Source: an uncultured Verrucomicrobiota bacterium (GTDB taxonomy: Bacteria > Verrucomicrobiota > Verrucomicrobiia > Opitutales > Seribacteraceae). Taken from it: 64,000 nucleotides of DNA. Below are positions 41,355 to 60,715 of the stretch, piece after piece. The stretch is from assembly GCA_902580225.1 (NCBI GenBank), contig CACHJU010000004.1:1-64000 (forward strand), in the 5' to 3' direction. The notes beneath the pieces are model-generated. The model had not been told where the DNA came from. It worked only from the letters and a program-made list of their open reading frames with translations, and did no database searches. The position numbers and the translations under genes are program-made. How positions within the stretch are numbered: the stretch's first letter is position 1; the number at the start of each line of letters is the position of its first letter.

Positions 41355-42338
41355 ATGATACAGGAAATTGGTGGAAAATCTTTTCGGAAAAAAAGTAAAA
41401 AGAACTTGAAGTTCATTGATCTTTTTGCGGGCATTGGTGGAATCCGTCTTGGGATGGAAGCCGCAGGTGGAAAGTGTGTATTCTCTTCAGAATGGGATCC
41501 TCATGCTAAAAAAACTTACAAGCACATGTTTGGTGAAGAGCCCCATGGGGATATCAATGCTATTGACCATGATGAAATCCCTAAATTCGATGTTCTTACC
41601 GCAGGTTTCCCCTGCCAGCCGTTTAGCAGTATTGGTAAACGGGAGGGCTTTAGTCATGAAACACAAGGAACCTTGTTTCATGAGATTTTAAAGATCCTTG
41701 ATCACCATAAGCCATCTGCGTTCATTTTGGAAAATGTTAAAGGGCTCACTCATCATAAAAGCGGGGATAAGGATACCTTGGAAATTATCCACGATAAATT
41801 GGTTGAACATGGTTATTGCCCTCAAATAAAGCTCCTTGATGCATCTAAATTTGGTGTACCTCAGTACCGAGAGCGAATATTTATAGTTGGTTTCAGGAAG
41901 GATGAGCATTTCAGGGCATCCTGGCGTTTTAAATGGCCTGTTGAAAGTGAAGTAACCGCTACTCTTGGTAATGATATTATCCAGTCCGGTGTAGATGGTT
42001 ATTCCATATCCCAGCACCTTCAGAATTCATATATTTATAAAAAGAATGACGGAAGACCTAGAGTACTGATTCCAGGTGATTGTTCTGATATAACTTTGAA
42101 TACCCTTGTCTCGACCTATCATAAAATCCAAAGATTGACGGGAACATTTGTTCAGGATGGACCAACCGGTTTAAGGCTTCTCTCCGTTCAAGAGTGTCTC
42201 GATATTATGGGATTTCCAAGAGGTTTCGATATTCCCGTTTCAAGGACCCAGGCCTACAGGCAGTTGGGTAATTCAGTGGCAGTACCTGTCGTCAGGGAAG
42301 TCGCCCAATCAGTAGCAGCTGCGTTGGCTGTGAAATAA
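41355..42338 (+). CDS. DNA cytosine-5 methyltransferase (type II R-M)
   Basis: A 327-aa m5C methyltransferase. Motif I is FIDLFAGIGGIRLGMEAAGG, motif IV with the catalytic Cys is AGFPCQPFSSIGKREGF, motif VI is FILENVKGL, motif VIII is PQYRERIFIVGFR and motif X is RQLGNSVAVPVV. The target-recognition region between VIII and IX is short, typical of a 4-6 bp type II specificity. Vsr and a candidate restriction enzyme lie within 3 kb. The operator-like palindrome seen before the restriction and vsr genes has no clear copy here, so the methylase may be expressed independently. Confidence 0.95.
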   Translation: MIQEIGGKSFRKKSKKNLKFIDLFAGIGGIRLGMEAAGGKCVFSSEWDPHAKKTYKHMFGEEPHGDINAIDHDEIPKFDVLTAGFPCQPFSSIGKREGFSHETQGTLFHEILKILDHHKPSAFILENVKGLTHHKSGDKDTLEIIHDKLVEHGYCPQIKLLDASKFGVPQYRERIFIVGFRKDEHFRASWRFKWPVESEVTATLGNDIIQSGVDGYSISQHLQNSYIYKKNDGRPRVLIPGDCSDITLNTLVSTYHKIQRLTGTFVQDGPTGLRLLSVQECLDIMGFPRGFDIPVSRTQAYRQLGNSVAVPVVREVAQSVAAALAVK

Positions 42339-42373
42339 GTACTTTTTTTAAGCTTGGCTAGCCTGGAAAGAAA

Positions 42374-42751
42374 TCAGGCACTCAACCATTCCTTTATGCG
42401 GATTTTATATTTCTCTGCAATTTGTGGGAAATTATTCGATTCAATTTCAAGAAAGTTGCTGGCCTCCTGAAGTTGAACTTCAGTCCTATCAACTCCTTTG
42501 GGATAGTTCATTTCGAGGAAGCCAAAAACTAACCCTTTAAAAGAAGGTTCGCCGTCCATTCGAATTGAATCTATGAATTTTATTAAACCTGCCTCATCTG
42601 GTAGTTCAGGCAGGATGTCAGCAGGTAGAGTGTATTCAATTCCGCAGGAGTCATTGATCTTGAATGACCAACCATCTGAGGTTTGATTTGCGTTGAGCGA
42701 GGTGGAGTCTCCACCAGATGCAGTGTTTGTTGTTACTGTTATGATATTCAT
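42374..42751 (-). CDS. Hypothetical protein (125 aa) in R-M region
   Basis: Begins MNIITVTTNTASGGDSTSLN and continues with SDGWSFKINDSCGIEYTLPAD; soluble, mildly acidic and without signal peptide. No family recognised. It is 36 bp downstream of the 77-aa gene and probably co-transcribed with it. Convergent with the methyltransferase. Could be an R-M accessory, but nothing in the sequence shows that. Confidence 0.5.
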   Translation of the reverse strand: MNIITVTTNTASGGDSTSLNANQTSDGWSFKINDSCGIEYTLPADILPELPDEAGLIKFIDSIRMDGEPSFKGLVFGFLEMNYPKGVDRTEVQLQEASNFLEIESNNFPQIAEKYKIRIKEWLSA

Positions 42752-42787
42752 TTATTTTAAGATTCAGGATTAAAAATTAATTATTTA

Positions 42788-43021
42788 CTAGCGTCCAATA
42801 CAATCTCCCCCTTGTGAGATCAGTACAAAGCGGTTGGTATTTTCAGGGAAGTAAGGATTGTTACCAAGTTTGAATATTCCACGTAAGTGTGCCTTCAAGG
42901 ATTTCTGAAAATTCTTTCCATTGAGATTTTTTTGTCTTTCGAAGTAGTGACTCATTGCATTTATACCCGGTTGATTCTTCCGTGGTCGTTTTCTTCTTTT
43001 GTTTTTATTGAAATCGTTCAT
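42788..43021 (-). CDS. Small basic hypothetical protein (77 aa)
   Basis: The first 15 residues are strongly basic (NDFNKNKRRKRPRKNQPGIN), followed by MSHYFERQKNLNGKNFQKSL. The N-terminus could bind nucleic acid. It is divergent from vsr across 156 bp carrying two copies of the TTACT-N4-AGTAA element, so both genes could share regulation. Not recognised. Confidence 0.5.
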   Translation of the reverse strand: MNDFNKNKRRKRPRKNQPGINAMSHYFERQKNLNGKNFQKSLKAHLRGIFKLGNNPYFPENTNRFVLISQGGDCIGR

Positions 43022-43051
43022 CAGTTGATCTGAAAATGGAGTTTTTATAAA

Positions 43052-43065
43052 TTACTTACGAGATT
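43052..43065. promoter_or_regulatory. Degenerate operator-like site (TTACT-N4-AGATT)
   Basis: The left half-site is perfect and the right half keeps AG only. It lies 33 bp, about three helical turns, from the perfect site at 43085. Weak alone; listed because of that spacing. Confidence 0.35.
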
Positions 43066-43084
43066 TAAAAAAATAATAACACTT

Positions 43085-43098
43085 ACTTTTTAGTAATT
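43085..43098. promoter_or_regulatory. Palindromic operator TTACT-N4-AGTAA, vsr/77-aa intergenic
   Basis: Perfect TTACT-TTTT-AGTAA between divergent genes, about 80 bp before vsr. It contains T-N11-A, the core of LysR-type binding sites, and shares all ten fixed bases with sites at 45995 and 52745. A candidate -10 (TAATAT, 43105) lies just downstream. Confidence 0.65.
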
Positions 43099-43177
43099 TA
43101 TGTAATATTGAATCCAACCGGTTTCTAATGTTTTTTATTTGTGCCATTTCAGAAATTATAAATATAACTTTTTCTAA

Positions 43178-43606
43178 ATGGCTGATAAAATATCACCTCA
43201 AAGGCGTTCCTGGAATATGTCCAGAATCAGGTCTTCGAATACGAAACCAGAGATTGCAGTCCGTTCGGCACTGCACCGCAACGGATTCCGTTTTACAGTA
43301 AATGGACCATTAAACAAGAAGTTGCCTGGCAAGCCAGATCTCGTACTGCCCAGATACAGGACAATTATTTTTGTACACGGATGTTTCTGGCATGGACATG
43401 AGAATTGTAAGATATCCAGAATTCCAAAAACAAGGACGGACTGGTGGAAGTCAAAGATCGGGAAAAATCAGGACCGGGATAAGATAGTCAGAAAAACACT
43501 GCTTGAGATGGACTGGAATATTTTAACTATTTGGGAATGCGAAATAAAAGAAGATCCAACCCTTAAAGAGTTAATTCTCCAGGTTAATCAAAAAAGCGTA
43601 AGTTAA
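43178..43606 (+). CDS. vsr: Very short patch repair endonuclease
   Basis: A 142-aa Vsr endonuclease, which nicks next to T:G mismatches arising from deamination of 5-methylcytosine. Family landmarks: RSWNMSRIRSSNTKPEIAVRSALHRNGFRF (N-terminal helix), GKPDLVLPRYRTIIFVHGCFWHGHENC (catalytic Asp, then the zinc-binding His/Cys region) and WNILTIWECE. It partners the nearby C5 methyltransferase. Its last 23 bases overlap the 3' end of the convergent restriction gene. Confidence 0.95.
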   Translation: MADKISPQRRSWNMSRIRSSNTKPEIAVRSALHRNGFRFTVNGPLNKKLPGKPDLVLPRYRTIIFVHGCFWHGHENCKISRIPKTRTDWWKSKIGKNQDRDKIVRKTLLEMDWNILTIWECEIKEDPTLKELILQVNQKSVS

Positions 43607-44963
43607 GCTTCAATTGTATGCGGTCTCCCCTGTGGTCACTTGGGTATGTCCAGCTAAACACATCCCATGTTTTATCGAGTGGGATTGCCATAAGTTTATC
43701 TATATGAGAGTCCCAGGTTTGGCAGATTAGTTCCTCCCCACTTTCCCTTTTCCTCCTCATGAAAATATTTTGTGCAACCTGAAAGCCGTATTTCAAGTTA
43801 CCTTCAGGTTCCCATTGTCCTTTTAGGACCCATTCAGCCAACTTCCGCCTATGAGGTTCATAAGAAATATGAAAGTCCTGTTTGGTATAATTATAAGAAT
43901 TACTTACCATGCCTTCCCAACTACCATACTCCTGGAACTTGCTGAAGTATTCTCCTAACCTATGGGTTTCGGGTAAACCAAGTATTTCCATAAAATCACT
44001 TGCTCTTCTTTCATGGCATGAAACCTGGCTAGCAGTAGAGTTCTTTACCGAAAAAGTAACTTCTTTTTTCGTGTCCCTAATATGAACAGAGCAAATTATA
44101 TCCGTTTTCGCTTTGCCTCCATTAGATAATAACGGAACCGAGTCGGTTGCCACGAGCCTGTCTATTTCACTGCTATCAATTTTTAACTGTCTGGTAATAA
44201 AAGATGCAATCCTGTCAAATTCAGGTGAACCAGATTGGCCATTTTTCTTAAATTCTGTGAGGAGATCGGGTATGTTCAGGATACCAGTTAAGAATTTTTC
44301 GTACCGGTATCCGATTTTTTCGTAACGGCCTGGATCTTCCGTTGCAACATCTGAGCAAAACTCATCAAAATTAAGTTCCTCTGCGGATACAGCTTCAAAA
44401 GATTCCTGTATGTCCTGTTTCTGAAGTATAATGCCTCTTTCGTATTCAAGGAAAAAGGAATCAAGTTCCTCTACCAGCAGAATATTCTCAAACGGGCAGT
44501 ATTGTTCCTTGTTTTTTACTCTGTTTCTAAAGTTAATAAAACTTTGTTCATTCTCACCAATTACAAATAGCGAACTAACCAAACTGTCAGCGAATTCCGG
44601 GCTTTGAAGGACTCCTTCCATATCATAGTAACTTATCTTTCGCCTGTCCTGCCTGAAGGTATTGGAACCAAAAATAATAATTGTTTTCTCATCAATCGTA
44701 TCTACATAAAAATGCGGACAATGTTCGTTTTTGTAGGAATATCCAGTCTTTGCTAAACTACCAACTTCTCCCCAGTTCCGTATAAGGCTTTGTTTTTTAA
44801 GATTATCAAGAATCCAGCTTATTGCCTTTTTGAAGTCCCTGCCAGATTGAGCCTTCGACTTTTCTTGCCTGTCGAGATTAAATTCGTTCTGAGTCATCGT
44901 AATTGCTTTTGGCCCTCCATGCCCAGGAATGAAATGTTTTCGTTTATATTCATGCAACCACAT
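43584..44963 (-). CDS. Candidate type II restriction endonuclease
   Basis: About 459 aa from the ATG at 44963; another start at 44897 (MTQNEFNLDRQEKSK) has GGAGGG 15 bases upstream and is also possible. A PD-(D/E)XK-like core is suggested by GGKAKTDIICSVHIRDTKKE then VTFSVKNSTASQVSCHERRA: Asp, then a strand ending in S-V-K-N. Identity rests on that motif and on the adjacent C5 methyltransferase and Vsr. I do not recognise a named subfamily; an MspI/HpaII-like enzyme is one possibility. Expression may be controlled through the operator-like site 48 bp upstream. Confidence 0.6.
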   Translation of the reverse strand: MWLHEYKRKHFIPGHGGPKAITMTQNEFNLDRQEKSKAQSGRDFKKAISWILDNLKKQSLIRNWGEVGSLAKTGYSYKNEHCPHFYVDTIDEKTIIIFGSNTFRQDRRKISYYDMEGVLQSPEFADSLVSSLFVIGENEQSFINFRNRVKNKEQYCPFENILLVEELDSFFLEYERGIILQKQDIQESFEAVSAEELNFDEFCSDVATEDPGRYEKIGYRYEKFLTGILNIPDLLTEFKKNGQSGSPEFDRIASFITRQLKIDSSEIDRLVATDSVPLLSNGGKAKTDIICSVHIRDTKKEVTFSVKNSTASQVSCHERRASDFMEILGLPETHRLGEYFSKFQEYGSWEGMVSNSYNYTKQDFHISYEPHRRKLAEWVLKGQWEPEGNLKYGFQVAQNIFMRRKRESGEELICQTWDSHIDKLMAIPLDKTWDVFSWTYPSDHRGDRIQLKLNLRFFD

Positions 44964-45010
44964 TATCAAGGCGGTGGAATTAAACTAAACTAAATTAAAA
45001 GTCAGAATGC

Positions 45011-46190: not shown

Positions 46191-49091
46191 GTGGAACAAA
46201 CAATAAAAAGAATTGCTGAACTGCAACTTCAGTACAGCCCCAATGCTACTTCGGCAATGAAGGAGAGGGGAGAGCTTGTAAATAAAACTTTACCCAATGA
46301 ATTAAAGGAAGTGGTAGATTCTTTCGGTAAAGAATATAAAGATCATAAATTTCAAATAAGTGGGCGTGACGGTGCCGGTTTACATGCCACTATCCCGTTT
46401 GTGGAAATAAGAGTACTAAATGGGTTGAATGTAGACTGTGACTTTTATGTTGCGATTTATTTCTCTAGAGACGGTGAGAGAATCTATGTGACCTTTGGTG
46501 CGGATGCTTTAAAGCACAATTTGCACTTACCCAAAAAGAGAAATGAAAGCCAAGCCATTCTTGGGGGAATGCAAGAAATTCTCAGTACGCACAAAATACT
46601 TTCTAAGGATAAAAAAGACTGGTCTCAAAACTTTAAAAGTAAATTAAATCTAAATATTTATTCTAAAGGCACTAGCCTTTCTTTGTACGAAGTTTGTACC
46701 ATTGCTGCCCAGGAGTTTTTCGTTCAGGATCTTGATTTAGAGGATTTTTTGGGATCCATACAGTATGCAATGGAATGCATGATGTGTTTGATCTCTCATT
46801 CTGAAAAAGAGTCATCAGAGACAACCAAAAAAAGTTTTGAAGACTATTTGCTGAGAAATAATAAAACGGGAAGCGGGAAGGCTTCTTCATACATTAGAGC
46901 ACTTTCATTACTTGAGCAGTTGTTAGACCGCCAGCCACAAGGCTTTGAGCATTGCTGTAACATCTGGAAAGTGGAATCAGTTTCAAAATTACATGAGCTT
47001 TATGAATTTGTTCTAATTCAGGCAAAGCAACCTAAGCAGAGTGGCTGGGTTTTTGACGATATTCCTGAAAGTTATCTTGAAAAGGGCTTTTGTAGTGCTG
47101 CATTAAGAGCTTACATCGAATTCAGGTCTTCTTTTGAAGTTCAGCCCCAGCTTTTCTGCCAGCTTGCCCTGCATTATTTACTCGGAGAAAGAGAAAAAAG
47201 TTTTTCCGAACATGGCCCTGGAAACGATTTCCATACTTTTTTCACAGGAGAAAATGAAAAGTACAGTTTTGATAAATTAATGTGCTTTAAACTGGATGAT
47301 CCAGGCCAGGCAGATTTCAAAGAAATAACAAAGGATCTTAAGTTTTTATTGGGTGAAGTTTTTCCATACTTGAGTTCTTTAAACAGATTGGCTCCCCAGG
47401 TTGCTTCTTTTTTTAATTCGAGTGCCTTTTCGGTTGGTAATGATTTATCTATTTATGTTTACCCTTACCTGGACTGTATTAAAGGTCTCCAAAGCTTAGA
47501 GGTATCAGAAGATTTCAAATTAGTTCCGTTTCTTTCCAGTCTGATAAATGCTCAGAATGATTTTAATACTGCAGGTTTCGCTTCTTCTGGGCTAATTAAA
47601 TTTGTATGTGAAAGTGCACTCAAGGAAGCGGGTCCAGGCAGTACAGTTTATGATCCAGCCTGCGGTATTGGAACTGTCCTGATTTGTGCATTAGATCAAA
47701 TTTCTGGAATAAGAGATCTTTATCAAATTTCAGGTTCTGAGATAAACCCCGTATTGGCAAATATAGCTAAAGCCGGATTTTTGCTTAAAGCATTTACAAT
47801 TCGCGACAAATTGGACCCTGTTGTTTTAAACGATTTAATTTTCAGAGTATCACCTAATATCCGCATTGAAGATTCCCTTAAATCCAACCAGCAAGTTATA
47901 AGAGATTTGAGTGAGCATTGGTCGAGTTATAATGAACTTCTTATGTATCCTCCGTACCGCGGCGATCATTTAAATAAGTATGATTATATTATTACTGAGC
48001 CACCTCAAGATGGGGCTGGTTTAAATGAGACTTTTCTCAAATTAGATCATCAACAATTTCTTTTATTCTGTGCATCCCGAAATATTCAAGCTCAACAGTC
48101 GTTGTTGATCCTGTCAGAATCAATCCGTAGGAGTGAAAGAGATGGGCAGCTGAGGGATTTGATGATTAGAAACTTTCCACCTACTGCTATTTATCATGCA
48201 CATGCAGAAAAAAAAGTGATTCTTCATTTTGAAGAGTTCCGCCCTGACAAGTTAATATTTGGCGATATTGCTGATAATAACAACTCAAATGCGGAGAATG
48301 TCCCTCTAGAAATTAGTAATCTAATTACAGCAAGTAAGGACGAAATAGTTTCTGGAAACCGGGAACTTGTATTTTCGAGAGAGACTAAAACCGAGAATGA
48401 ATCAACAAAAGTTAGTTTTGAAAAAGCCCGTCAATACTTTGAGTTTCAAATTGATAAATTCAATGATTTATTAAGAGAGTCCCGTCAAATTCATGACGAA
48501 ATTGAAAATACGAAACAAGAATATCAACCTAAAAGAAAATTGGCTGAGTATTTATCGGGAGGCCAGGGATGGCTGGATGTATCTGGTAGTTCGTTGAAAG
48601 GATTGGACATAGGTTTAATGGAAGAAAGCAAATCCGAAAAGGTTGCTGTTATTGAAGTATTCAGTAACCGCACGAAACTTAAACTACAGAAAAAAATTGG
48701 CCTCATGGAACAACTTAACCGTGAGCATTTAGAGACAACACCTCCATATCAGATCTACTTCGTGCATAATGAGAGAGAAAAAATCGACCCCAGTTTCTTA
48801 TACTATTGGATTAGAGCACAATTGAGCTCAAAAATAGAAAAACAGCTCCGCCGTAAAAGTATTGTTGAAGTGCCAGTAAGAGTAGATTTTTTAATGCATG
48901 AAATTTGTAATCAAAAAATCACAATCCCACCTTTTTATTTACAAGGTACAATTGCCAAATTTTTGCGTAAATTATTTCCTCTTGCTGGAATCAATATGAG
49001 TGGTGGATTTGGACTAAAGATGGGTAGTGGAACGAGTTCTTCCCGCACTCCTCATATCGTTGACATGATAAGGTATTTATTGTGTCTATAA
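46191..49091 (+). CDS. McrB-N (DUF3578) + altered N6-methylase-like + specificity-like fusion
   Basis: A 966-aa protein with a GTG start. About residues 1-200 resemble the McrB N-terminal modified-base-binding domain (SGRDGAGLHATIPFVEIRVL; YVAIYFSRDGERIYVTFGAD). About 455-680 resemble HsdM-type N6-adenine methylases: motif I is STVYDPACGIGTVLICAL, but motif IV, normally NPPF/Y, reads DYIITEPPQDG near residue 600. About 790-935 look like a type I specificity half (QGWLDVSGSSLKGLDIGLM, then VPVRVDFLMHEICNQKITIP). The loss of the catalytic Asn suggests a DNA- or SAM-binding reader rather than a methylase. First gene of a four-gene set. Confidence 0.7.
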   Translation: MEQTIKRIAELQLQYSPNATSAMKERGELVNKTLPNELKEVVDSFGKEYKDHKFQISGRDGAGLHATIPFVEIRVLNGLNVDCDFYVAIYFSRDGERIYVTFGADALKHNLHLPKKRNESQAILGGMQEILSTHKILSKDKKDWSQNFKSKLNLNIYSKGTSLSLYEVCTIAAQEFFVQDLDLEDFLGSIQYAMECMMCLISHSEKESSETTKKSFEDYLLRNNKTGSGKASSYIRALSLLEQLLDRQPQGFEHCCNIWKVESVSKLHELYEFVLIQAKQPKQSGWVFDDIPESYLEKGFCSAALRAYIEFRSSFEVQPQLFCQLALHYLLGEREKSFSEHGPGNDFHTFFTGENEKYSFDKLMCFKLDDPGQADFKEITKDLKFLLGEVFPYLSSLNRLAPQVASFFNSSAFSVGNDLSIYVYPYLDCIKGLQSLEVSEDFKLVPFLSSLINAQNDFNTAGFASSGLIKFVCESALKEAGPGSTVYDPACGIGTVLICALDQISGIRDLYQISGSEINPVLANIAKAGFLLKAFTIRDKLDPVVLNDLIFRVSPNIRIEDSLKSNQQVIRDLSEHWSSYNELLMYPPYRGDHLNKYDYIITEPPQDGAGLNETFLKLDHQQFLLFCASRNIQAQQSLLILSESIRRSERDGQLRDLMIRNFPPTAIYHAHAEKKVILHFEEFRPDKLIFGDIADNNNSNAENVPLEISNLITASKDEIVSGNRELVFSRETKTENESTKVSFEKARQYFEFQIDKFNDLLRESRQIHDEIENTKQEYQPKRKLAEYLSGGQGWLDVSGSSLKGLDIGLMEESKSEKVAVIEVFSNRTKLKLQKKIGLMEQLNREHLETTPPYQIYFVHNEREKIDPSFLYYWIRAQLSSKIEKQLRRKSIVEVPVRVDFLMHEICNQKITIPPFYLQGTIAKFLRKLFPLAGINMSGGFGLKMGSGTSSSRTPHIVDMIRYLLCL

Positions 49092-49116
49092 GTATAATTT
49101 TTAATTTTTTAAATCC

Positions 49117-51015
49117 GTGAGCAAAGATAAAACCGAAAGTATCCAAGCCGAGTTAGAGCGGCTTACACCTAAGCAGCAAATTCACGCATTAAATTCGCTT
49201 CCAAGTAAGTTCGATAAGAACGATTCGTTTCTTCATAGTTTAAAGTTAGGGAAATTTAAAGCTTTTGATGAGCCTCAACTAGTTGAGTCGCCTTTAATTT
49301 CTCTTTTGTATGGTAAAAATAGTGCTGGGAAATCAAGCCTTGTTCAGTCTTTACTCTATCTGAATGAAGCGAGAAAAGGGAATTTTGATGCACATGATAC
49401 GGAACTTGGTGGTGATTCTGTAAACCTTGGAGGATTTTATAATTTTATTCACAAGAGGGATGAAAAAGACAAAGTCCAAATCGATTGTGAGCTAAATATT
49501 CCAGAATTTGGCCGTTGTATCTTAAAATTCGATTTTGGAGAAATCGAAATGGCTAGCACCTCACACTTTACTGACATACCTAAAGGTGCAACTGATTTAG
49601 ATCAAGAAATCATAAACCAGTTTTTTGTTTACAAAAAAGATCCAGAAGTGGTTAAAAAGCTTCTTGGATTAAAACCTGACGAAGAGATCAAAGTTAGTTT
49701 TCAAACTGAACAAAGGGCGAGTTTTGAAAAACAGATTAAGTTACTCGATATATCAGTTGTTTTGGGTGAAGTTGAAATTATAAGCTTCTCCCAAAGTCAC
49801 TTTAGTGAATGTTTCAAAATAAATTTTACTGAGGGTCTTGAAAAAATTGGTCTTAACAAAGAAGACTGGGAGCCTTTTGCAAATTCGCTTCAGGCCAAAA
49901 CTGCTTTTAATAAACTGGTTCCAGAAAATCTTTTTCATAAAAAAATAATGGAAAACGATGGTCCGTTTGATAAAAAGCAGGAGGCGGAACACAAAAGCCT
50001 TCGAAATTTAATAGTACATGGGAAAGATAAAAATCTGTTGGGTAAACTTGGTGGTTTTCTCAGTAAGATTTCAACGGAGTTAGGCGCTGTTCTTGATAGC
50101 TTCAATTATTTTAGTGGGAACAGGGCAATGCCATCACAAAACATTCTGGATGGTTCGTCTGGTACCAAAAGCTCTGGTGATGCGGGAGGAGAAAGATGCT
50201 GGGCGGATATAAAGAAAGATAAAAAGCTGATGGACAGGGTTAATAAATACCTGGGAGATCTTTTTGATAACAGATACCAGCTCGTTCTCATCAAAAGTTT
50301 TTCAGCAGAAATAGCCTCCAAGGTTGCAGGTGAAGCCTTGAGCGAGTCATTGGGGTTAAGTGGAGAAAGTAAGGATGAAGAAGGTGGCAGAGAGGTGTAT
50401 GCAGATGATCATATTGTTGAAGATGAGTCCTTCGAGTATGGCTCACCTGTAAATTCACTTGATCCTGAAGATCTTAAAAGTAAAGTTCTAAACAAATTAA
50501 ATTCTAATAAGCAAGTCCCAGAGTTCACTTCGTTGAGAATTTGGGATAATGTGCCCGATCTACCGCTCAGGCTACAAGACTTGGGCCGTGGTGTAGGCCA
50601 GGTGATTCCAATCATCGCAGCTAGTTGCGAACCTGGCCGCACAATTATCGTTGAGCAGCCGGAATCTGATTTACATCCTAAGCAACAGTCGATTCTTGCT
50701 GATATGCTTATCGAAAATGCAGTTAAGTATGGAACAAGGTTTATTATCGAAACCCATAGTGAATTTTTGCTTCTTCGGCTTTTAAGAAGAATTGGGGAAA
50801 CGGATGCGGATAAATTATCAGACGAAGATAAAAACTATGCCCTCGATGTTGAACAGTTAGGCGTTTACTATGTACACGCTGCCGATCAGGATGAAGGGCG
50901 TACTGGTGTAAAGGTGGAAAGAATGGAAATCTCTCCCAAGGGCCGGTTAAGAAATCCATGGCCAAAAGGTTTTTTCTCGGAAAAGAAAGAAGATATTTTC
51001 TGGCATGCAGGCTAA
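49117..51015 (+). CDS. AAA15-type ATPase with DUF3696
   Basis: A 632-aa SMC/ABC-like ATPase, GTG start. LGKFKAFDEPQLVESPLISLLYGKNSAGKSSLVQ holds the Walker A (about residue 65); an ABC-like LQDLGRGVGQVIPI and Walker B TIIVEQPESDLHPKQQ (about 511) follow, then FIIETHSEFLLLRLLRR. The C-terminus (MEISPKGRLRNPWPKGFFSE) is DUF3696. No TOPRIM domain is fused, unlike OLD nucleases. Such ATPases act as sensors or motors in several defence systems (PARIS AriA is an analogue). It overlaps the next gene by 11 bases. Probably drives the nuclease encoded two genes downstream. Confidence 0.85.
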   Translation: MSKDKTESIQAELERLTPKQQIHALNSLPSKFDKNDSFLHSLKLGKFKAFDEPQLVESPLISLLYGKNSAGKSSLVQSLLYLNEARKGNFDAHDTELGGDSVNLGGFYNFIHKRDEKDKVQIDCELNIPEFGRCILKFDFGEIEMASTSHFTDIPKGATDLDQEIINQFFVYKKDPEVVKKLLGLKPDEEIKVSFQTEQRASFEKQIKLLDISVVLGEVEIISFSQSHFSECFKINFTEGLEKIGLNKEDWEPFANSLQAKTAFNKLVPENLFHKKIMENDGPFDKKQEAEHKSLRNLIVHGKDKNLLGKLGGFLSKISTELGAVLDSFNYFSGNRAMPSQNILDGSSGTKSSGDAGGERCWADIKKDKKLMDRVNKYLGDLFDNRYQLVLIKSFSAEIASKVAGEALSESLGLSGESKDEEGGREVYADDHIVEDESFEYGSPVNSLDPEDLKSKVLNKLNSNKQVPEFTSLRIWDNVPDLPLRLQDLGRGVGQVIPIIAASCEPGRTIIVEQPESDLHPKQQSILADMLIENAVKYGTRFIIETHSEFLLLRLLRRIGETDADKLSDEDKNYALDVEQLGVYYVHAADQDEGRTGVKVERMEISPKGRLRNPWPKGFFSEKKEDIFWHAG

Positions 51016-51985
51016 AGAGCATCTCTCGATTTTTGGTTTAGATCCTAAGATTTTTATAAATCGAATTGATAGGGATGAGGATGATTTCCAGATCAAAACA
51101 TCTTGGGGTAAATTGGAAGAACGTTTACTTGGGCCTGCTGCAAAAAATCGGACCAGTGAGATTGGTGCTTTGATTTGGGATGCCATTGATGAAGATGGGA
51201 ATCGTTTTTCGAGTTTGGTTATGGAAAATTATGAACTGCTTGAAAATGAGCCAAAAGCAATATTTGATGAGCTTATGCAATCAGGAAGAATAGTTGATGA
51301 GCTGTACAAAGAAGATTCTGAACAGGAAACTTTTGGAATTGTTGCTGAAAGATTAACTTTAAGTGATTTGGAGGAGATAGGGGATGATTGCATTTCATCT
51401 CTCTTGGAAGAAAGTGAATCTTTAAATGGTTTTATCTCATACACCAGTTTCTTTTCAGTCAGCTACACTAGAGAAGATTGGTGGTTGCAGTTTGAGCCTG
51501 ATTACACTGAGTGTAATCTTGATACTCAGTTAAGCGAATTTCGAAACATACTCCTATATTCAGAAGACATTAGTATTTTTGATAGAGAGTGGGAGCCTGA
51601 CAACAAAACTGGCTACTTATCAGTAAATAAGATCTTTGAGCTAATCCAATGCAACCGACTTGACCCCGTTGTAAGAATCCATAGAAAAAACACTGATGAT
51701 TTTCACAATTGGCTTGGTCCTACAAAAGTAGAAGCATTTTGTGATCGTGCAAAAGCTAAAGTAGGTAATGTGAAAGTTAAGATCTATTTTTGGCGAAAGC
51801 AGTACATCCATTTTAGGGCAATATGTTGCAGTTATGGTGGTTATCATTCAAGTTATGGAGTCCAGGAATTTGATGATGCCAGTCAGTTGTACACTCCGAT
51901 TCCTGCGAAGACATTAACGTCCATTCATCATGCTTTTATACCTGACGATAATAATAAAGCATTTTCAGCAATTATGGATGTGTAA
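51005..51985 (+). CDS. Hypothetical protein linked to the DUF3696 ATPase
   Basis: A 326-aa soluble protein overlapping the ATPase gene by 11 bases, so co-translated. It is acidic in the middle (LSDLEEIGDDCISSLLEESE); the C-terminal third has VVRIHRKNTDDFHNWLGPTK and KVKIYFWRKQYIHFRAICC, resembling the end of phospholipase-D-like or sensor domains, though that is weak. No motif is conclusive. A one-mismatch copy of the operator palindrome lies inside it (51613) and is probably chance. Obligate partner of the ATPase by context. Confidence 0.6.
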   Translation: MQAKEHLSIFGLDPKIFINRIDRDEDDFQIKTSWGKLEERLLGPAAKNRTSEIGALIWDAIDEDGNRFSSLVMENYELLENEPKAIFDELMQSGRIVDELYKEDSEQETFGIVAERLTLSDLEEIGDDCISSLLEESESLNGFISYTSFFSVSYTREDWWLQFEPDYTECNLDTQLSEFRNILLYSEDISIFDREWEPDNKTGYLSVNKIFELIQCNRLDPVVRIHRKNTDDFHNWLGPTKVEAFCDRAKAKVGNVKVKIYFWRKQYIHFRAICCSYGGYHSSYGVQEFDDASQLYTPIPAKTLTSIHHAFIPDDNNKAFSAIMDV

Positions 51986-52018
51986 GTATGTGGATTTACA
52001 TTTTTATATACTAATTTA

Positions 52019-52642
52019 ATGCCTAAAAGTATTTCTACACAACTGAAGTCTTTAAATCTAATTTCAGGCGAAAAAACTATAAATGTTTTTGATAACCTGT
52101 TTAAAAATATTCTTAAAAAAAAGATCACTTCTAGTTCGGGTTTTATAAATACAAGTTGTAAGCAGTTTAAAGCAAGCCCTGCATACAACTCTAAAAACTA
52201 CAGTCTTAATGGTAATGTTTTTGAAGGTCTGCTTGCAGTCCTTTTTTACCGAGTTGGGATTTACCCTCTATTCCGTCAGGCGAAAATGGCTTTTATTCCA
52301 AATATCGAATTCGATTTTGTGGCATATTCAAAAGAGATAGGGCCAATAGTACTTTCGGCCAAAACTTCCCTGCGGGAAAGGTATAAGCAGGCAGACCTGG
52401 AAGGGATAATGATGAGGCAGGTTCACCGTCGTGCGAAGTCTTATCTTCTGACCTTGGATGAAGATGAGGCAATGAATGTTAATTCTAAGATTAAGGAGGG
52501 GAAGGTGCTTGGCATTGACCGTGTGTATGTTGCCTCTGAGCCAGAGTTTGATGATCTTGTTGAGGAGTTGAAAAGCTGGACTCTTATAGAGCCTCAAGCC
52601 GAGCCTGTAGTCGAAAGTAGCAGGATTATCAGGCCTTCCTGA
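52019..52642 (+). CDS. PD-(D/E)XK-like nuclease
   Basis: A 207-aa protein with a nuclease-like core: GNVFEGLLAVLFYRVGIYPL (Glu of the first helix), IPNIEFDFVAYSKEIGPIVLSAKTSLRERYKQADLEG (Asp, then the S-A-K strand and the following Arg-rich helix). This E...D...xAK pattern is typical of restriction-type nucleases and of small BsuBI/type IV-like effectors. It starts 34 bp after the preceding gene and ends the four-gene cassette. It is the likely DNA-cutting component. The 176 bp after it hold an operator and the next promoter but no gene. Confidence 0.65.
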   Translation: MPKSISTQLKSLNLISGEKTINVFDNLFKNILKKKITSSSGFINTSCKQFKASPAYNSKNYSLNGNVFEGLLAVLFYRVGIYPLFRQAKMAFIPNIEFDFVAYSKEIGPIVLSAKTSLRERYKQADLEGIMMRQVHRRAKSYLLTLDEDEAMNVNSKIKEGKVLGIDRVYVASEPEFDDLVEELKSWTLIEPQAEPVVESSRIIRPS

Positions 52643-52818: not shown

Positions 52819-53310
52819 ATGAAGTTTAACCAGCGTATAAATTCGAATTCCCAGCCACTCCAAAAGAATGATCTTTTGATTGTTGATTTTGCGAAGATGT
52901 TATTCGGGCCATTGTCCGAGGGTTATGTGATAGCAGGATATGGTATACATACACACAACAAGTTTCTGTTAATGAGTGGGCGTGGGAGTGTGTATGAGGA
53001 TGCATTTGAGCCATGCAGGGAAACATTCTGCGAATGGATGAGTTCTGAAAAAGAGCAGTTCCCTGATCAGGAATTTGAACAGGCAAAGATCCCAGTTGAG
53101 CAAGGAAAAGAGGCAGATGGGGTTACAGATTTGGACCAGGCAGTGGAGAGGTTTTCTCTGGCATCGGATGCGTTTCTCATGTTCGGATATTTTGGAAATC
53201 ATAAGGTTTTTAAATCGTATGCATCTGATCCGTTAAAGGCGGATGCGGTAATGTATTTGCAGATGGTTGCCATGAAGTTATGGGGCAAGGAAAAGAAGGC
53301 ACAGCAATGA
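52819..53310 (+). CDS. Hypothetical first gene of the retron operon (163 aa)
   Basis: A soluble 163-aa protein. DLLIVDFAKMLFGPLSEGYV and ASDAFLMFGYFGNHKVFKSY are the ordered-looking parts; the centre is acidic (EKEQFPDQEFEQAKIPVEQG). No family recognised. It ends with a four-base ATGA overlap with a 43-aa basic ORF and sits upstream of the retron RNA, so it probably belongs to the same transcription unit. It could be an effector, antitoxin or regulator. Confidence 0.65.
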   Translation: MKFNQRINSNSQPLQKNDLLIVDFAKMLFGPLSEGYVIAGYGIHTHNKFLLMSGRGSVYEDAFEPCRETFCEWMSSEKEQFPDQEFEQAKIPVEQGKEADGVTDLDQAVERFSLASDAFLMFGYFGNHKVFKSYASDPLKADAVMYLQMVAMKLWGKEKKAQQ

Positions 53311-53735: not shown

Positions 53736-53762
53736 CAATCTATTTTGCGGAGGTACGAAATA

Positions 53763-55742
53763 ATGAAGGAGGAGGAGTTGAACTTTATTAGAACCTGGGG
53801 AACTTTGCTTTGTTCAACCGAGCGGAGATTAAAGGAATTAGCCTGGGAGCTTGCGGATGCAAGAAGGTACAAACAGTTTGCGATTCCAAAGTCTAATGGA
53901 GGGCTGCGGATAATTAGTGAGCCGATTGATTCTCTAAAGGAGATTCAGCGTTTGTTGCTTGTTATTATGGAAAGGTCATACGAGCCACTCGGGAATTCTC
54001 ATGGTTTTATTTCACGGCGTAGCATACTCACGAATGCAAAGCCGCATGTCCGGAAGCCCTGGGTTTTTAATACTGATATAGAAAAGTTTTTTCCGACAAT
54101 ACGAATGGAAAGAATCAAACAGGTACTATCCGATATAAGGTTGAAATTTCTACTCGATGTTCCAGGTAATCAAAATGCAGTCACTTTTAAAGAGGTAAGA
54201 TTGAGTGCAGAGATTGTATCATTGCTTGCGAATCTGTGCTGTTTCCGACAAGTCGAGGGTAGTGACGATCCAGAAAGCTGGTATGGTTTGCCACAGGGGG
54301 CACCTACATCTCCGATATTATCAGATATGGTAGCCCGAAAAATGGATGAGGACATACTCAGCTTTTGTGCGGATAGGGGTATTGAATATACCAGGTATGC
54401 GGATGATTTATCTTTTTCCCCTTTGGATCCGAAGGACTACTATGGGTACAAGCAATTAATTGTTGGGAGAGTTTCTAAAAACCCTGAGCTATGGACGGAA
54501 TTGAAGGAAATTATCAATAGTTATGGATTCCGTATTAACGCCAAGAAAAATAAATTGTTTTGTGGGAAGTCATGTAAGCAGGTGACCGGACTTTCAGTAA
54601 ATGAATTTCCTAATGTTCCAAGGAAGGTCATTCGTTCGATTCGACAGGATTTATATCTTTGGGATAAGCATGGGCACGACCGTGCAAATGATATTATTCA
54701 TGAAAGAAAGAATTACCGTCATAAAAAATGCCCTAAGCGTTTGAAGAATATGCTTCATGGTAAACTTATGTTCTTGTCTATGGTAAGAGGGAAGGGTGAT
54801 CCTGTTTATTTGCGGTTTGTACGTCGGTTTCAGGAATTGGAGAAACGGGATATGCTGAATTCATCCAGCGGGAATTTTTCCTGTAAATGGAGCCCCGTTA
54901 ATATGTGGGATGCAAACAGTAACTGGATGTCTCAGGCAGGAAGTGAGGAGATGAGATTCAGGGTAAACCTCGAGGATTTCCCTAGGCGGTCGGCCAAGCA
55001 CTTTGGTGACAGGAGAAGAATTTTTCTTCAAAAATCAGGGGATTTACGTGGCATGCTTAGAACCGAAGTGGGTGCCTGGGCGTATGAGCGTTTGCAGCAT
55101 ACTTTTAATCTACGGCAAAACCTGATGGATGAATTTACTTATGATCCATTTGTAAAGGGTGGTAAATGCCTACTTGAATATATGCTGGAAGCAGAGGCGT
55201 CTTACTTGCATCTTTTACATGATGAATTGATTGAAAGTCAGGCACATGATGCGTGGAGTGCGTTGTTCTTTCGACTCATGGAAATTAATGGAAATACTTG
55301 TTCAACAAAACTTTTGGATCCTGCATTCCGATGCCATATGGAGCATATCGACTGGGGTACTTTTTTCCGTCATCAAAATGACGAGTTTCTTTCTAAGCGG
55401 TATGGTTATGAAAAATTTGATCTTAATGATTTGTTAAGCATTGCGTCATCCCCCAAAAGGCGGGTAACACCAACATCTTCGCTTATGCTTTGGACTGCCT
55501 TGGCACCCATGGCCCTCAATACAAAGGACGAGGGTTTAGGTTCGCACCGTAAATTATTCCAACAGACTTTGGAGGATACTCCTCATTTTTTCCCACTTTT
55601 TGATGATGTGCTTACAAGTTGTGGCAGAACACGAAACGGGAACCCGCCGAGCTTATCCATGCACACTATGAGAAAAGGTATTTTTACTTTCATAAAAGCA
55701 TTTGGAGCAAAGCCTATTCATAAACAACTAGCACTTATTTAA
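53763..55742 (+). CDS. Retron-type reverse transcriptase with long C-terminal extension
   Basis: Start moved from the listed TTG (53745) to the ATG at 53763, which has GGAGG 9 bases upstream; 659 aa. RT motifs: VFNTDIEKFFPTIRMERI, LPQGAPTSPILSDMVARKMD and YTRYADDLSFS (catalytic YADD, about residue 211). The retron marks are NAKPH (X region, about 90) and VTGLSVNE (Y region, about 274). A normal retron RT ends near residue 340; here about 320 more residues follow (for example RTEVGAWAYERLQHTFNLRQ; DWGTFFRHQNDEFLSK), an alpha-rich region I do not recognise that could be the effector or a docking part. Two bases separate it from the next gene. Confidence 0.92.
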   Translation: MKEEELNFIRTWGTLLCSTERRLKELAWELADARRYKQFAIPKSNGGLRIISEPIDSLKEIQRLLLVIMERSYEPLGNSHGFISRRSILTNAKPHVRKPWVFNTDIEKFFPTIRMERIKQVLSDIRLKFLLDVPGNQNAVTFKEVRLSAEIVSLLANLCCFRQVEGSDDPESWYGLPQGAPTSPILSDMVARKMDEDILSFCADRGIEYTRYADDLSFSPLDPKDYYGYKQLIVGRVSKNPELWTELKEIINSYGFRINAKKNKLFCGKSCKQVTGLSVNEFPNVPRKVIRSIRQDLYLWDKHGHDRANDIIHERKNYRHKKCPKRLKNMLHGKLMFLSMVRGKGDPVYLRFVRRFQELEKRDMLNSSSGNFSCKWSPVNMWDANSNWMSQAGSEEMRFRVNLEDFPRRSAKHFGDRRRIFLQKSGDLRGMLRTEVGAWAYERLQHTFNLRQNLMDEFTYDPFVKGGKCLLEYMLEAEASYLHLLHDELIESQAHDAWSALFFRLMEINGNTCSTKLLDPAFRCHMEHIDWGTFFRHQNDEFLSKRYGYEKFDLNDLLSIASSPKRRVTPTSSLMLWTALAPMALNTKDEGLGSHRKLFQQTLEDTPHFFPLFDDVLTSCGRTRNGNPPSLSMHTMRKGIFTFIKAFGAKPIHKQLALI

Positions 55743-57095: not shown

Positions 57096-59219
57096 ATGGA
57101 CGAATCAGCTGCAGATATTATTCAATCGGTTAAACCCATTTATCCAGAAGGCTTAATTAACTGGATGGGCAATCGCGAGGGCGGCGTACGAATACCATTT
57201 CAAAAATCTTCTGGTCGGCCAAGTGGTGAGCAAATTGAAACGCCGTTAGTGAACAAATTGAACAGATGGGCGGCTGCTATTGCTAAAGGGGAAGAAGTTC
57301 CAAGAAATATAATCCTAGTCGGAGGTCCGGGAAATGGGAAGACCGATACTATTGAGGGGTGTATTGAATCTCTGGATTCAGAGATGGGTGCGGAGGGAAA
57401 GCTATTGGAAGCTTTTGAGAAAAAGTTTATCACTGAAGGTGAAGATTTGGCTCCCAGACGGGTTGATGTTGAAATCAAGAAATTAGGATTAAAGAAACCT
57501 CCTGAAAACATAGGCTCAATCATTCTAGTTCAGGACGCAACGGCCAACGATCCAGTCGCTGGAAAAAGTGCAGCCAGCCTCTTGTATGAGGAACTGGAAA
57601 CACTTTTAAATGCTGATTCGAAGGATATATATCTGTGCTGTGTGAACAGAGGGATTTTATCGCAGGCTGTGGCGATAGCATCGGGTCAGAATAGCAAGGC
57701 CCAGAAGCTTGTTTCTTTAATGACAAAAGCAGTCACAAGCAGTGCAGAGCCACCATCTTGTTGGCCGCTTGATGGATATCCTCAAATTGGCATATGGCCA
57801 ATGGATGTGGAGTCTCTTGTTTTTACTCCAGCAGGAAATGTAAAAACAGTTGCACACCAGATAATCTCGGCAGCTGTGGATAAGGAAAAATGGCCAGAAC
57901 CTTGTGAATCAGGTAGCAGGTGTCCATTTTGCCAAAACAGAAAATTACTCGAAAAAAGCTCTAATCAGGATGGGCTGGTTTCAATACTGCATTATTACGA
58001 GCTTTCATCAGGCAAGCGTTGGACATTCAGGGATCTGTTTTCTTTGATTCCATACATTATAGTCGGGGATCTAAACGAATTTGAGATAAAGGGTAAAAGG
58101 TTCAGCCCTTGTGAATGGTCAGCACAGCAGTTAAAAATAGCGAATGAGGGGCCAGCTGGTAGTCGGGAAAGAGTTTTGGCCCCTTTTCTACTTGCATCAC
58201 GCCTGTATTATCATCGCCTATTTCCGGTGTGGCCGTCTTTTAATAAAGGAGATTTCCTAAAGGCAAAACGTGAACTACTCAAATCTGGACAGAAAGATGA
58301 AGGTCTGCAAGCAGGAGCGGATTTATTCAAATTTTTCGCGGCTTCCGGGAAACTTTCAAGGATTTCGGGTGGAGAAATAATGGAGCGGGTTTGCGATAGT
58401 TTATGTCCAAACCTGGACCCTGGTAATATCACAGGTGAGCAAGTGTTGATTGAAAGAAATGGAGAGGGAATTACCATTGCAGATATTGAGAGTGATTTCA
58501 GCTTGTCCGTTAAAGATGGCCTGGAGGGTGTTAAGTTTCAGGTCGAGCAATTGGAGCGGGATATTCTCAAATTAGTTGCAAAAGCGGATGAATCTCTGAC
58601 GGAGGATAAGTTCCCCAGAAATCATTCAAGAAAGTGCCGCTTACTCCAGATTACGGTCAGGCAATTTTCATCCAGGCTGGTTAAACGCAGTTTGGGGACA
58701 AGACTGGGAATATGCAGCGACTCCATTCATTTTAAAGGTTATATAAATAAGGTCATGAACGGTGACGACGGTTTAAGCGAAGTCAGGAAGGCGATGAAGC
58801 TTTTAATTCACGAATCAAATTCATTTAAAGCAAACCTTGCTACAACCTTTGGGCAACCAATGGCAGAACGTTCGAGGGAAATATCCCTTATCATTGAAAG
58901 AACAATTAACCCTAAGCCATGTTCATCCGAATTAACATGTGAGTCGCGGCCTAAGGAGTCATTTTCTTTTCTGAAGATAGAAGGCCATTTTGTGCCTGTT
59001 ACTTTTCAACTTTATAAGGCCTTGCAAAATATAAAAGATGGGCTTCTTCAGGCCTCTCTTCCTAATGAAATTTTTTCTATGCTGGATTTGATAAAAGCTC
59101 TGGTATCTGGGAAGGTCGTCCGTGATAAAGACTACTTGCAGGAAGACGCAAAGATCGTAGTTGGCCGCAACAAAGAAAAAATATCTTTCTCGAATGGTAA
59201 GTTTTACTTTCTGAAATGA
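57096..59219 (+). CDS. Large P-loop ATPase (defence-type)
   Basis: A 707-aa protein. Walker A is NIILVGGPGNGKTDTIEG near residue 75. GSIILVQDATANDPVAGKSA (about 145) and the following IYLCCVNRGILSQAVA look like Walker B/sensor regions of an AAA-type domain. CPFCQNRKLL suggests a half zinc site with an upstream Cys in PCESGSRC. The last 250 residues are helical and unknown. Order and size (ATPase, 499-aa unknown, very large protein) recall DptF-DptG-DptH restriction modules, but homology is unproven by eye. It overlaps the next gene by four bases (ATGA). Confidence 0.7.
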   Translation: MDESAADIIQSVKPIYPEGLINWMGNREGGVRIPFQKSSGRPSGEQIETPLVNKLNRWAAAIAKGEEVPRNIILVGGPGNGKTDTIEGCIESLDSEMGAEGKLLEAFEKKFITEGEDLAPRRVDVEIKKLGLKKPPENIGSIILVQDATANDPVAGKSAASLLYEELETLLNADSKDIYLCCVNRGILSQAVAIASGQNSKAQKLVSLMTKAVTSSAEPPSCWPLDGYPQIGIWPMDVESLVFTPAGNVKTVAHQIISAAVDKEKWPEPCESGSRCPFCQNRKLLEKSSNQDGLVSILHYYELSSGKRWTFRDLFSLIPYIIVGDLNEFEIKGKRFSPCEWSAQQLKIANEGPAGSRERVLAPFLLASRLYYHRLFPVWPSFNKGDFLKAKRELLKSGQKDEGLQAGADLFKFFAASGKLSRISGGEIMERVCDSLCPNLDPGNITGEQVLIERNGEGITIADIESDFSLSVKDGLEGVKFQVEQLERDILKLVAKADESLTEDKFPRNHSRKCRLLQITVRQFSSRLVKRSLGTRLGICSDSIHFKGYINKVMNGDDGLSEVRKAMKLLIHESNSFKANLATTFGQPMAERSREISLIIERTINPKPCSSELTCESRPKESFSFLKIEGHFVPVTFQLYKALQNIKDGLLQASLPNEIFSMLDLIKALVSGKVVRDKDYLQEDAKIVVGRNKEKISFSNGKFYFLK

Positions 59220-60715
59220 AAATAGAAGATTTTATAAAGAAGCCTTTTTCCAATGATTGCCATGAATATGGATGCAGCTTGTTGGACATTTCGCCTAAAC
59301 CAGAATATGCAACTGGTGAGGTAGTCCTTGCATCTACATTAAGACGAATTGGATTCTCTGAATCTGGAGTCTCAGAGAAAAAAGTCTATTCCAATGGTAC
59401 AAATCTTGAAAAGAATCTTCGAAAGCAAAAACGGCCTAATATGGAAGAGGGTGCAAGTTATGTAGGTTTTGACCTGTGGGATTCTATAGTGCATGAAGCG
59501 ATAAAAAGCCCCAAGAAACCTCAGCAATCAGAAAGCAGATTTTTGCAGATTAGCCCTCTTGTCCCTGATGCCTCTTTATACTCTTCAACAAGTCGAGTCC
59601 GTGGTAATTCTTGGAATCCAGGTAGCTTGGTAGAAAAAATAGTTATTTTGGGATCTGAAGACGATGCCGCTGCAAATAAGAACTGGAAAGAGTTTTTTAA
59701 TGCTTTAAGCGTTGGTGAAAATGATGATGTCTGGGCCCGGTTTCTCCAAATGGAATTTACTGCCTGGAGGTCTGAAAAAAACATCAAGTGGACAGAGCCA
59801 TCGAAACTGAAAGCCTCTCAATTCAGCAATAAGTTTCTCTCAAAAGAAAGTCAGATACCTGCACAACAGTTTGTGTCAGATCTTTTGAAGATCATTGAGT
59901 TGAAGGATTATCTTACCAGAAGGCAATGGATAAGTATGATCGAATCAATTTTGAGAGTAGGGTCAGCTACGCATGTTCTGTGGCTATGCCGTGCTAATGA
60001 AAAATGCTTTGATCTGATTTACAACTTACTTGAAGGAGGGGAAGTTAAGAAGGATTTCAACTTGAATGAAATTTTTGCGGGGGGAGCTGGATTTTGGAGG
60101 TATGGTCAGCTTGCATACAATACGATTAATGATCTGGCTTCAGGCTTCATGCGTTCAAGGTTGGGAATTAATTTGATTATTTTGCATCTTAAGGAAGCAG
60201 GCTGTAAAGTTAGTGATAAGTGCTTAAGCGACGAGAAGAGCTTTGCCCAATTCCTAAAACAGATCGAATCCTTTCGTGGAAAGATTAGCTTTAAAGATTT
60301 CCGTGAGTCTTTTCAGAAAGCACTTGAGATTAATAAGAAAGAAATTGGTAAATCCAAAGTAGTTGAGTTTGTCAGAAGTGTTCTTGGCCAGAGGCAAACG
60401 AATGAGCATGGTCTGGAGAGCTATGATCAAGGGTTTTATCTTGGGAAAAAAGGAGACTACCGATCTTCTCCCTGGATTGTGTCCATGGGACCTGTTGCGG
60501 TAATCTCAATTGCTTATGCATGTACAAGTTTGAAAGACGGACCCGCTACTATCGACGATTTTTGTAATCATTTGAAAAATTATGGAATAGTTGTGGATGT
60601 TGAGGAGGTAGGCCGAAGTGGAATTGGAGAGACCTTAAGGAACCTGGGTCTGGTATTGGATAGTCCAGATGCTGAGGGTGGCATGATTATTATAAACCCT
60701 TTCAACCGCTCCTAG
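59216..60715 (+). CDS. Hypothetical middle component of the ATPase triad (499 aa)
   Basis: A soluble 499-aa protein coupled to the ATPase by an ATGA overlap. The first half is polar (SLLDISPKPEYATGEVVLAS). The most conserved-looking part is near the C-terminus: SYDQGFYLGKKGDYRSSPWIVSMGPVAVIS followed by DFCNHLKNYGIVVDVEE and GIGETLRNLGLVLDSPDAEG, reading like a winged-helix or HTH domain. No family recognised. Probably a subunit of a complex with its two neighbours. Confidence 0.6.
   Translation: MKIEDFIKKPFSNDCHEYGCSLLDISPKPEYATGEVVLASTLRRIGFSESGVSEKKVYSNGTNLEKNLRKQKRPNMEEGASYVGFDLWDSIVHEAIKSPKKPQQSESRFLQISPLVPDASLYSSTSRVRGNSWNPGSLVEKIVILGSEDDAAANKNWKEFFNALSVGENDDVWARFLQMEFTAWRSEKNIKWTEPSKLKASQFSNKFLSKESQIPAQQFVSDLLKIIELKDYLTRRQWISMIESILRVGSATHVLWLCRANEKCFDLIYNLLEGGEVKKDFNLNEIFAGGAGFWRYGQLAYNTINDLASGFMRSRLGINLIILHLKEAGCKVSDKCLSDEKSFAQFLKQIESFRGKISFKDFRESFQKALEINKKEIGKSKVVEFVRSVLGQRQTNEHGLESYDQGFYLGKKGDYRSSPWIVSMGPVAVISIAYACTSLKDGPATIDDFCNHLKNYGIVVDVEEVGRSGIGETLRNLGLVLDSPDAEGGMIIINPFNRS

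What the first reader, a model, noticed from the sequence alone, without database searches (positions are those of the whole stretch)
46191..52642. Four-gene modification-reading restriction cassette
Pseudo-methylase reader, AAA15/DUF3696 ATPase, 326-aa unknown and PD-(D/E)XK-like nuclease are adjacent, co-directional and in two cases nearly touching or overlapping. I know of no named system with this exact set. A division into reader, motor, adaptor and cutter is a sensible hypothesis.
Basis: inference. Interest (0 to 1): 0.75.

Follow-up and report, generated by a model that had tools for sequence, protein, structure and literature searches.

The report
Dead methylase sensor with ATPase-PLD pair
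Three neighbouring bacterial genes look like a phage-defence unit in which a DNA-methylating enzyme that has lost its chemistry may have become a sensor of marked foreign DNA, coupled to an ATPase and to a phospholipase-D-fold protein that turn up together across many bacteria; the fourth gene is more likely an ordinary restriction enzyme of a neighbouring system.

Summary
The four ORFs are real and in the stated places, but the unit is better drawn as three genes plus one. (1) The 966-aa reader is a chimera: MrcB_N modified-base domain, a domain otherwise N-terminal to HNH_2 nucleases, an HsdM-like methylase with a destroyed motif IV (EPPQ; relatives NPPF), and an HsdS-like target domain. (2) The ATPase (AAA15/21 + DUF3696) is followed by a homologue of the '326-aa unknown' in 65 of 80 loci across many phyla, mostly downstream of Type I restriction genes. 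(3) That unknown is a divergent phospholipase-D-fold protein (conserved HxR; homologous to the HKD domain of some BrxL proteins), so it is the likelier effector, not an adaptor. (4) The 207-aa nuclease belongs elsewhere: its relatives sit beside CCGG-type cytosine methylases, and the window carries such a methylase (53% identical to M.MspI) with Vsr and an MspI-type nuclease. No other locus carries all four genes. Poseidonibacter has an independent three-gene analogue (dead methylase-S fusion, ATPase, PLD partner). Best reading: a new variant of the known 'ABC ATPase + nuclease' defence modules, gated by a Type I-derived, methylation-dead sensor. Mechanism is inferred, not shown.

The parts
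46191..49091 (+). Reader: 966-aa chimera (MrcB_N, HNH_2-associated domain, dead HsdM-like methylase, HsdS-like target domain)
46254..46745 (+). MrcB_N (DUF3578) domain, aa 22-185
   Evidence: Pfam PF12102 E 8.5e-8, 32.5 bits against cut-off 25
46812..47144 (+). Domain shared with the N-terminus of HNH_2 endonucleases, aa 208-318
   Evidence: up to 48% identity to ~280-aa proteins in many genomes, which carry HNH_2
47226..48185 (+). HsdM-like N6-methylase region, motif I DPACGIGT kept, motif IV EPPQ instead of NPPF
48663..48974 (+). HsdS-like target-recognition region, aa 825-928
   Evidence: PADLOC Specificity_I models, best E 2.4e-6
49117..51015 (+). OLD/ABC-type ATPase with C-terminal DUF3696; Walker A GKNSAGKS and EQPE motif intact
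   Evidence: best PADLOC model NsnB E 5.6e-38
51005..51985 (+). PLD-fold partner of the ATPase (the '326-aa unknown'); PLD domain about aa 159-326, H269-x-R271 conserved
52019..52642 (+). 207-aa PD-(D/E)XK-type restriction enzyme (SAKTSLRERYKQAD motif), probably not part of the unit but of a CCGG-type II system
41355..42338 (+). 5-methylcytosine methylase of the M.MspI kind (CCGG), probable protector against the 207-aa nuclease; context
   Evidence: 53-56% identity to M.MspI and to methylases paired with the nuclease's relatives
43178..43606 (+). Vsr mismatch endonuclease; context
   Evidence: TIGR00632 E 9.6e-41
43584..44969 (-). MspI-family restriction endonuclease; context
   Evidence: PF09208 E 1.7e-37

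Best explanation
46191-51985 is a three-gene defence unit built from Type I restriction parts. Binding is relayed to the OLD/ABC-type DUF3696 ATPase, whose ATP cycle releases or activates the PLD-fold partner, which attacks nucleic acid. The 207-aa nuclease downstream is a separate Type II enzyme of a CCGG system protected by the M.MspI-like methylase at 41355-42338. Shown here: domain make-up, loss of motif IV, homology of the 326-aa protein to a conserved ATPase partner, its PLD fold (as a model), the link of the pair to Type I genes, the nuclease's own kinship.
For: Reader domains. HsdM relatives with intact NPPF sit upstream of the same ATPase-partner pair in many loci, order HsdR-HsdM-HsdS-ATPase-partner: of 58 loci with at least 5 kb upstream, 33 have an N6-methylase, 30 a helicase, 26 both, against 0 of 142 minus-strand ORFs. 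Partner follows the ATPase in 65 of 80 loci. Window 326-aa protein found by a partner profile built without it at E 1e-9, next best window ORF 0.21; hhalign E 5.9e-5. PLD fold: window model about aa 159-326, pLDDT mostly 80-92, Z 11.2 to MITD1 and 10.4 to SauUSI; canonical member L101 pLDDT 94, same fold. H and R conserved in 60 of 61. Homology to the BrxL C-terminal domain, E 1.8e-10; the same H-R-D variant is described there and judged likely active (PMC12839542). Independent three-gene analogue in Poseidonibacter, L093: methylase-S fusion with lost motifs I and IV, ATPase, partner, beside a complete separate Type I system. Nuclease kinship.
Against: It shows no pairwise similarity to the Poseidonibacter fusion, so the parallel may be convergent. 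In the window's partner the motif Asp is Ser and the GLD motif is altered, so it may not cut. The nuclease gene starts only 33 bp downstream with no terminator found between, so co-transcription is possible. An active M.MspI-like methylase nearby would make a McrB-like reader of 5-methylcytosine dangerous to its own host, so the modification read must be another one, or the reading is not of modification.
Confidence: 0.5

Rival explanations
1. One reading: one four-gene modification-dependent restriction system in which the 207-aa PD-(D/E)XK nuclease is the cutter and replaces HsdR.
For: Close co-directional spacing, 33 bp gap, no terminator found between; the unit lacks HsdR, so a cutter could have been recruited; the PLD protein has lost part of its motif.
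Against: Nuclease absent from all 95 ATPase loci. Its relatives overlap or adjoin cytosine methylases on plasmids and lie between a methylase and an HpaII enzyme, with Vsr, in G091. The window has the matching methylase.
Confidence: 0.2
2. The ATPase-PLD pair is a guard like PARIS or RloAB: it detects phage attack on the restriction machinery (anti-restriction proteins) and triggers cell suicide. The reader is bait rather than detector of modified DNA.
For: OLD-ABC ATPase + nuclease pairs are described as phage-sensing backup effectors of BREX and RM-like systems, and PARIS senses Ocr (PMC12839542). The pair rides on intact Type I systems and also beside Piwi and RAMP genes.
Against: In the window and in Poseidonibacter the pair has its own fused dead methylase-S protein rather than an intact Type I system, and the MrcB_N domain is hard to explain as bait.
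Confidence: 0.2
3. A decaying Type I restriction locus: fused and mutated remnants without function.
For: Methylase motif lost, HsdR missing, partner motif eroded, ATPase on a long branch.
Against: Three long intact ORFs with tight or overlapping spacing; ATPase motifs and the partner's H, R and D193 kept; added MrcB_N and HNH-associated domains are gain, not decay.
Confidence: 0.1

Closest known systems
OLD-ABC ATPase + nuclease modules (PARIS AriAB, Gabija, RloAB/AbiL, HNH- and REase-linked OLD-ABC pairs)
   Same: ABC-type ATPase gene overlapping or touching a gene for a nuclease-fold partner, attached to RM or BREX loci (PMC12839542)
   Different: Partner is PLD-fold, not TOPRIM, HNH or PD-(D/E)XK; ATPase carries DUF3696; here gated by a dead methylase reader
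Menshen (NsnABC)
   Same: NsnB is the best PADLOC match of the window ATPase, E 5.6e-38, and of its relatives
   Different: No NsnA or NsnC match; a true NsnC is unrelated to the partner family by sequence
Type I restriction-modification
   Same: HsdM-like and HsdS-like regions; most relatives of the ATPase-partner pair lie directly downstream of hsdRMS
   Different: Methylase dead, M and S fused, no HsdR
McrBC (Type IV)
   Same: MrcB_N domain
   Different: No McrB GTPase and no McrC; the domain sits on a methylase scaffold
BrxL with C-terminal HKD domain (BREX)
   Same: The C-terminal domain is homologous to the 326-aa partner, with the same H-x-R variant
   Different: There it is fused to the BrxL AAA+ ATPase; here it is a separate protein beside an ABC ATPase
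MspI / HpaII / BsaWI Type II systems (CCGG)
   Same: Neighbouring methylase, Vsr and MspI-type enzyme; the 207-aa nuclease belongs with such systems
   Different: Methylase and 207-aa nuclease are separated by about 9.7 kb

Membership tests
Menshen | NsnB-like ATPase | tested here: met
   PDLC03878 E 5.6e-38
Menshen | NsnC | tested here: not met
   No match of the 326-aa protein or of G000; hhalign of partner family with an NsnC: probability 0.3%
Menshen | NsnA | tested here: not met
   Reader matches no NsnA model at E 0.01
Type I RM | Active HsdM with (N/D)PP(F/Y) | tested here: not met
Type I RM | HsdS target domain | tested here: met
   aa 825-928, Specificity_I E 2.4e-6
Type I RM | HsdR in the operon | tested here: not met
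   None among the genes scanned from 34.5 to 64 kb; the SNF2 gene at 37444 is RapA
McrBC Type IV | MrcB_N modified-base domain | tested here: met
   PF12102 above cut-off; base flipping itself not tested
McrBC Type IV | McrB GTPase and McrC | tested here: not met
   No such Pfam match in the unit
PARIS | AriA-like ATPase plus AriB (DUF4435/TOPRIM) | tested here: not met
   AriA E 9.2e-15, weaker than NsnB; no AriB match
PLD superfamily | PLD fold | tested here: met
   Z 8-11 to PLD, NucT, BfiI, SauUSI, MITD1 for the window model and for a well-modelled relative
PLD superfamily | Complete HxK(x)4D active site | tested here: inconclusive
   Family has HxR(x)4(D/E/N); window HxR(x)4S; activity not testable
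CCGG Type II restriction (207-aa nuclease) | Homologues paired with a cognate cytosine methylase | tested here: met
   L155, L157, L154
CCGG Type II restriction (207-aa nuclease) | Cleavage specificity | not testable with these tools
   Needs an enzyme assay
RE_BsaWI PF18643 | Score above the family cut-off | tested here: inconclusive
   24.6 bits against 26.2

The most novel reading that the evidence does not exclude
The DUF3696 ATPase and the PLD-fold protein are a portable, so far unnamed effector pair that different sensors have captured: intact Type I restriction complexes, a Piwi protein, type III CRISPR RAMP proteins and, in this window and in Poseidonibacter, methylase-S fusions that gave up methylation to become pure sensors, here with an added modified-base reader. 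A restriction enzyme that marks self would thus have been turned into a sensor of marked non-self.
Probability: 0.35. Interest if true: 0.75.

Novelty: new variant of a known kind. Interest (0 to 1): 0.55.

Why it matters
DUF3696 is named in only one open paper of the library searched, and not in connection with defence. Its partner is 'hypothetical protein' in public annotation and matches no Pfam family above cut-off, yet the pair recurs in Type I restriction loci over many phyla. Naming it gives a testable second arm of Type I restriction. The window's chimera suggests a route from self-marking methylase to modification-dependent sensor. The correction matters too: the nuclease that looked like the cutter probably belongs to another system.

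Tried and rejected
Searches for the 326-aa protein alone in plasmids, viral contigs, 387 phylum genomes and all genome contigs found nothing; only the neighbour position and a profile of the ATPase's downstream genes revealed its family. Reader in plasmids and viral contigs: nothing. phmmer against the PDB for reader and nuclease: nothing. Filing under Menshen was considered and rejected because NsnA and NsnC are not met. The 'motor' role was rejected because the ATPase is ABC/OLD-like with no helicase match. A tree of 88 ATPases leaves the window on a long branch without a supported sister, so no phylogenetic claim is made. A weak PIN-like match of the partner's N-terminal half (1v8p, Z 7.9) lies at the chance level the tool quotes and was not recovered as a clear Foldseek match; not claimed. 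Not readable in this library: Li et al. 2025 on Menshen domain polymorphism (NAR gkaf357) and Krishnan et al. 2020 on ABC ATPases; either may already mention the ATPase-PLD pair.

Full report
Observation. The four ORFs are present as described, with gaps of 25, -11 and 33 bp. They lie in an A+T-rich stretch (G+C 0.35-0.42 between 41 and 53 kb against 0.50 at 37-40 kb) with other defence genes: a cytosine methylase, Vsr and an MspI-family nuclease upstream, a retron-like reverse transcriptase downstream.

Reader. Pfam gives MrcB_N at aa 22-185 (E 8.5e-8, above cut-off) and N6_Mtase at 468-537; PADLOC gives Type I specificity models at 825-928 (E 2.4e-6). A genome search added a fourth domain: aa 208-318 is up to 48% identical to the N-terminal part of ~280-aa proteins found in many genomes, which end in an HNH_2 nuclease domain. 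The methylase part aligns with ~550-aa HsdM proteins. Loss of the catalytic Asn/Asp and of the aromatic residue makes methylation very unlikely (established for N6-methylases; my knowledge). MrcB_N of E. coli McrB binds modified cytosine by base flipping (PMC3874153; PMC11090510), so reading of a modified base is a fair inference, not a result.

ATPase. AAA_15/AAA_21 with DUF3696 at the C-terminus; Walker A and the EQPE motif are intact. The best PADLOC models are NsnB of Menshen (E 5.6e-38), PDC-M55A and HEC-03B; AriA and GajA are weaker.

The 326-aa protein. By itself it has no relatives in any search. The clue came from position. In a first set of ATPase relatives the next gene was repeatedly about 310 aa, and one of these matched the window protein at E 2.9e-5. 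A scan of 84,980 species genomes with an ATPase profile gave 80 loci. In 65 the ATPase is followed directly by a member of one family, recognised by a profile containing none of these loci. A profile of 83 such partners, without the window protein, finds it at E 1e-9 among all window ORFs, next best 0.21; hhalign agrees (E 5.9e-5 over aa 179-292). The family signature is LHNRYILTDxGGxxFxxGLD; H and R are conserved in 60 of 61. This has the spacing of the HKD motif with Arg for Lys. The AlphaFold2 model of the window protein is confident over about aa 165-326 and matches PLD-superfamily structures: MITD1 Z 11.2, bacterial PLD 10.5-11, SauUSI 10.4, NucT 9.7, BfiI 8.8. A canonical member (L101) modelled at pLDDT 94 gives the same. 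The profile also hits the C-terminal domain of BrxL proteins (E 1.8e-10; Pfam MIT_C), where others described an HKD nuclease with the same Lys-to-Arg change and judged it probably active (PMC12839542). In the window the motif Asp is Ser, so activity is open.

Where the pair lives. Of 58 loci with at least 5 kb upstream, 33 have an N6-methylase gene within 9 kb on the same strand, 30 a helicase and 26 both; none of 142 long minus-strand ORFs fit the methylase pattern. Pfam confirms HsdR, HsdM and HsdS, and an annotated plasmid of Vibrio coralliilyticus shows the plain order helicase, methylase, S subunit, DUF3696, 'hypothetical protein'. Other settings: a Piwi protein directly upstream on a Deinococcus plasmid, RAMP genes (L114, L124) and sigma-54 regulators (L092, L102, L121). 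In Poseidonibacter lekithochrous (L093) the pair follows a 615-aa methylase-S fusion whose motifs I and IV are gone, next to a complete separate Type I system. This is the nearest analogue in architecture of the window unit, though the two readers show no direct similarity. It has no BsaWI-type nuclease.

The nuclease. No relative lies in any of the 95 ATPase loci. Relatives at 34-43% identity overlap a cytosine methylase on plasmids of Desemzia and Bacillus subtilis; in another genome of the same order (G091) one lies between a cytosine methylase and an HpaII enzyme, with Vsr. The window's own methylase is 55-56% identical to the two plasmid methylases and 53% to M.MspI of plasmid pMsp22, with a matching target-recognition segment. 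Economical reading: methylase, Vsr, MspI-type enzyme and the 207-aa nuclease form a CCGG-type island into which, or beside which, the three-gene unit sits.

How it works, best guess. Sensor (reader) to switch (ATPase) to effector (PLD protein). The ATPase class argues for a switch or sensor as in PARIS (PMC12839542) rather than a motor. If the M.MspI-like methylase is active, a McrB-type reader of 5-methylcytosine would attack its own host (McrBC restricts M.MspI-modified DNA; my knowledge), so the mark is probably another one, such as hydroxymethylated or glucosylated cytosine; this is inference.

Limits. Two papers that may bear on the ATPase-PLD pair could not be read, so 'unnamed' means unnamed in what could be searched here.

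Noticed in passing
window 53745-55742 and 52819-53310: Retron-like reverse transcriptase of 665 aa with about 300 C-terminal residues that match nothing; best model RT-Protease_XI covers the RT part. A 163-aa ORF without relatives precedes it; no Rfam match nearby.
   Followed up: partly
window 57096-64000: Three large co-directional ORFs (707, 499 and at least 1094 aa) without any Pfam match directly after the defence island.
   Followed up: no
window 41355-44969: Probable CCGG island: M.MspI-like methylase, Vsr and a 461-aa MspI-family nuclease with a long N-terminal extension.
   Followed up: partly
L093:1964-6219: Poseidonibacter: methylase-S fusion with both catalytic motifs lost + ATPase + PLD partner + WYL regulator, beside an intact Type I system.
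   Followed up: partly
L175:6138-10897: Deinococcus plasmid: Piwi-domain protein, DUF3696 ATPase and PLD partner in a row.
   Followed up: partly
L114 and L124: RAMP-superfamily (type III CRISPR-like) genes directly upstream of DUF3696 ATPases.
   Followed up: no
L073:8807-9943: Predicted pPIWI-associating nuclease (pP_pnuc_1) inserted between hsdS and the ATPase.
   Followed up: no
L154:6760-9796: Relative of the 207-aa nuclease between a cytosine methylase and an HpaII enzyme: two restriction enzymes sharing one methylase.
   Followed up: partly
window 46812-47144 (reader aa 208-318): A widespread, unnamed domain N-terminal to HNH_2 nucleases, here without the nuclease.
   Followed up: partly
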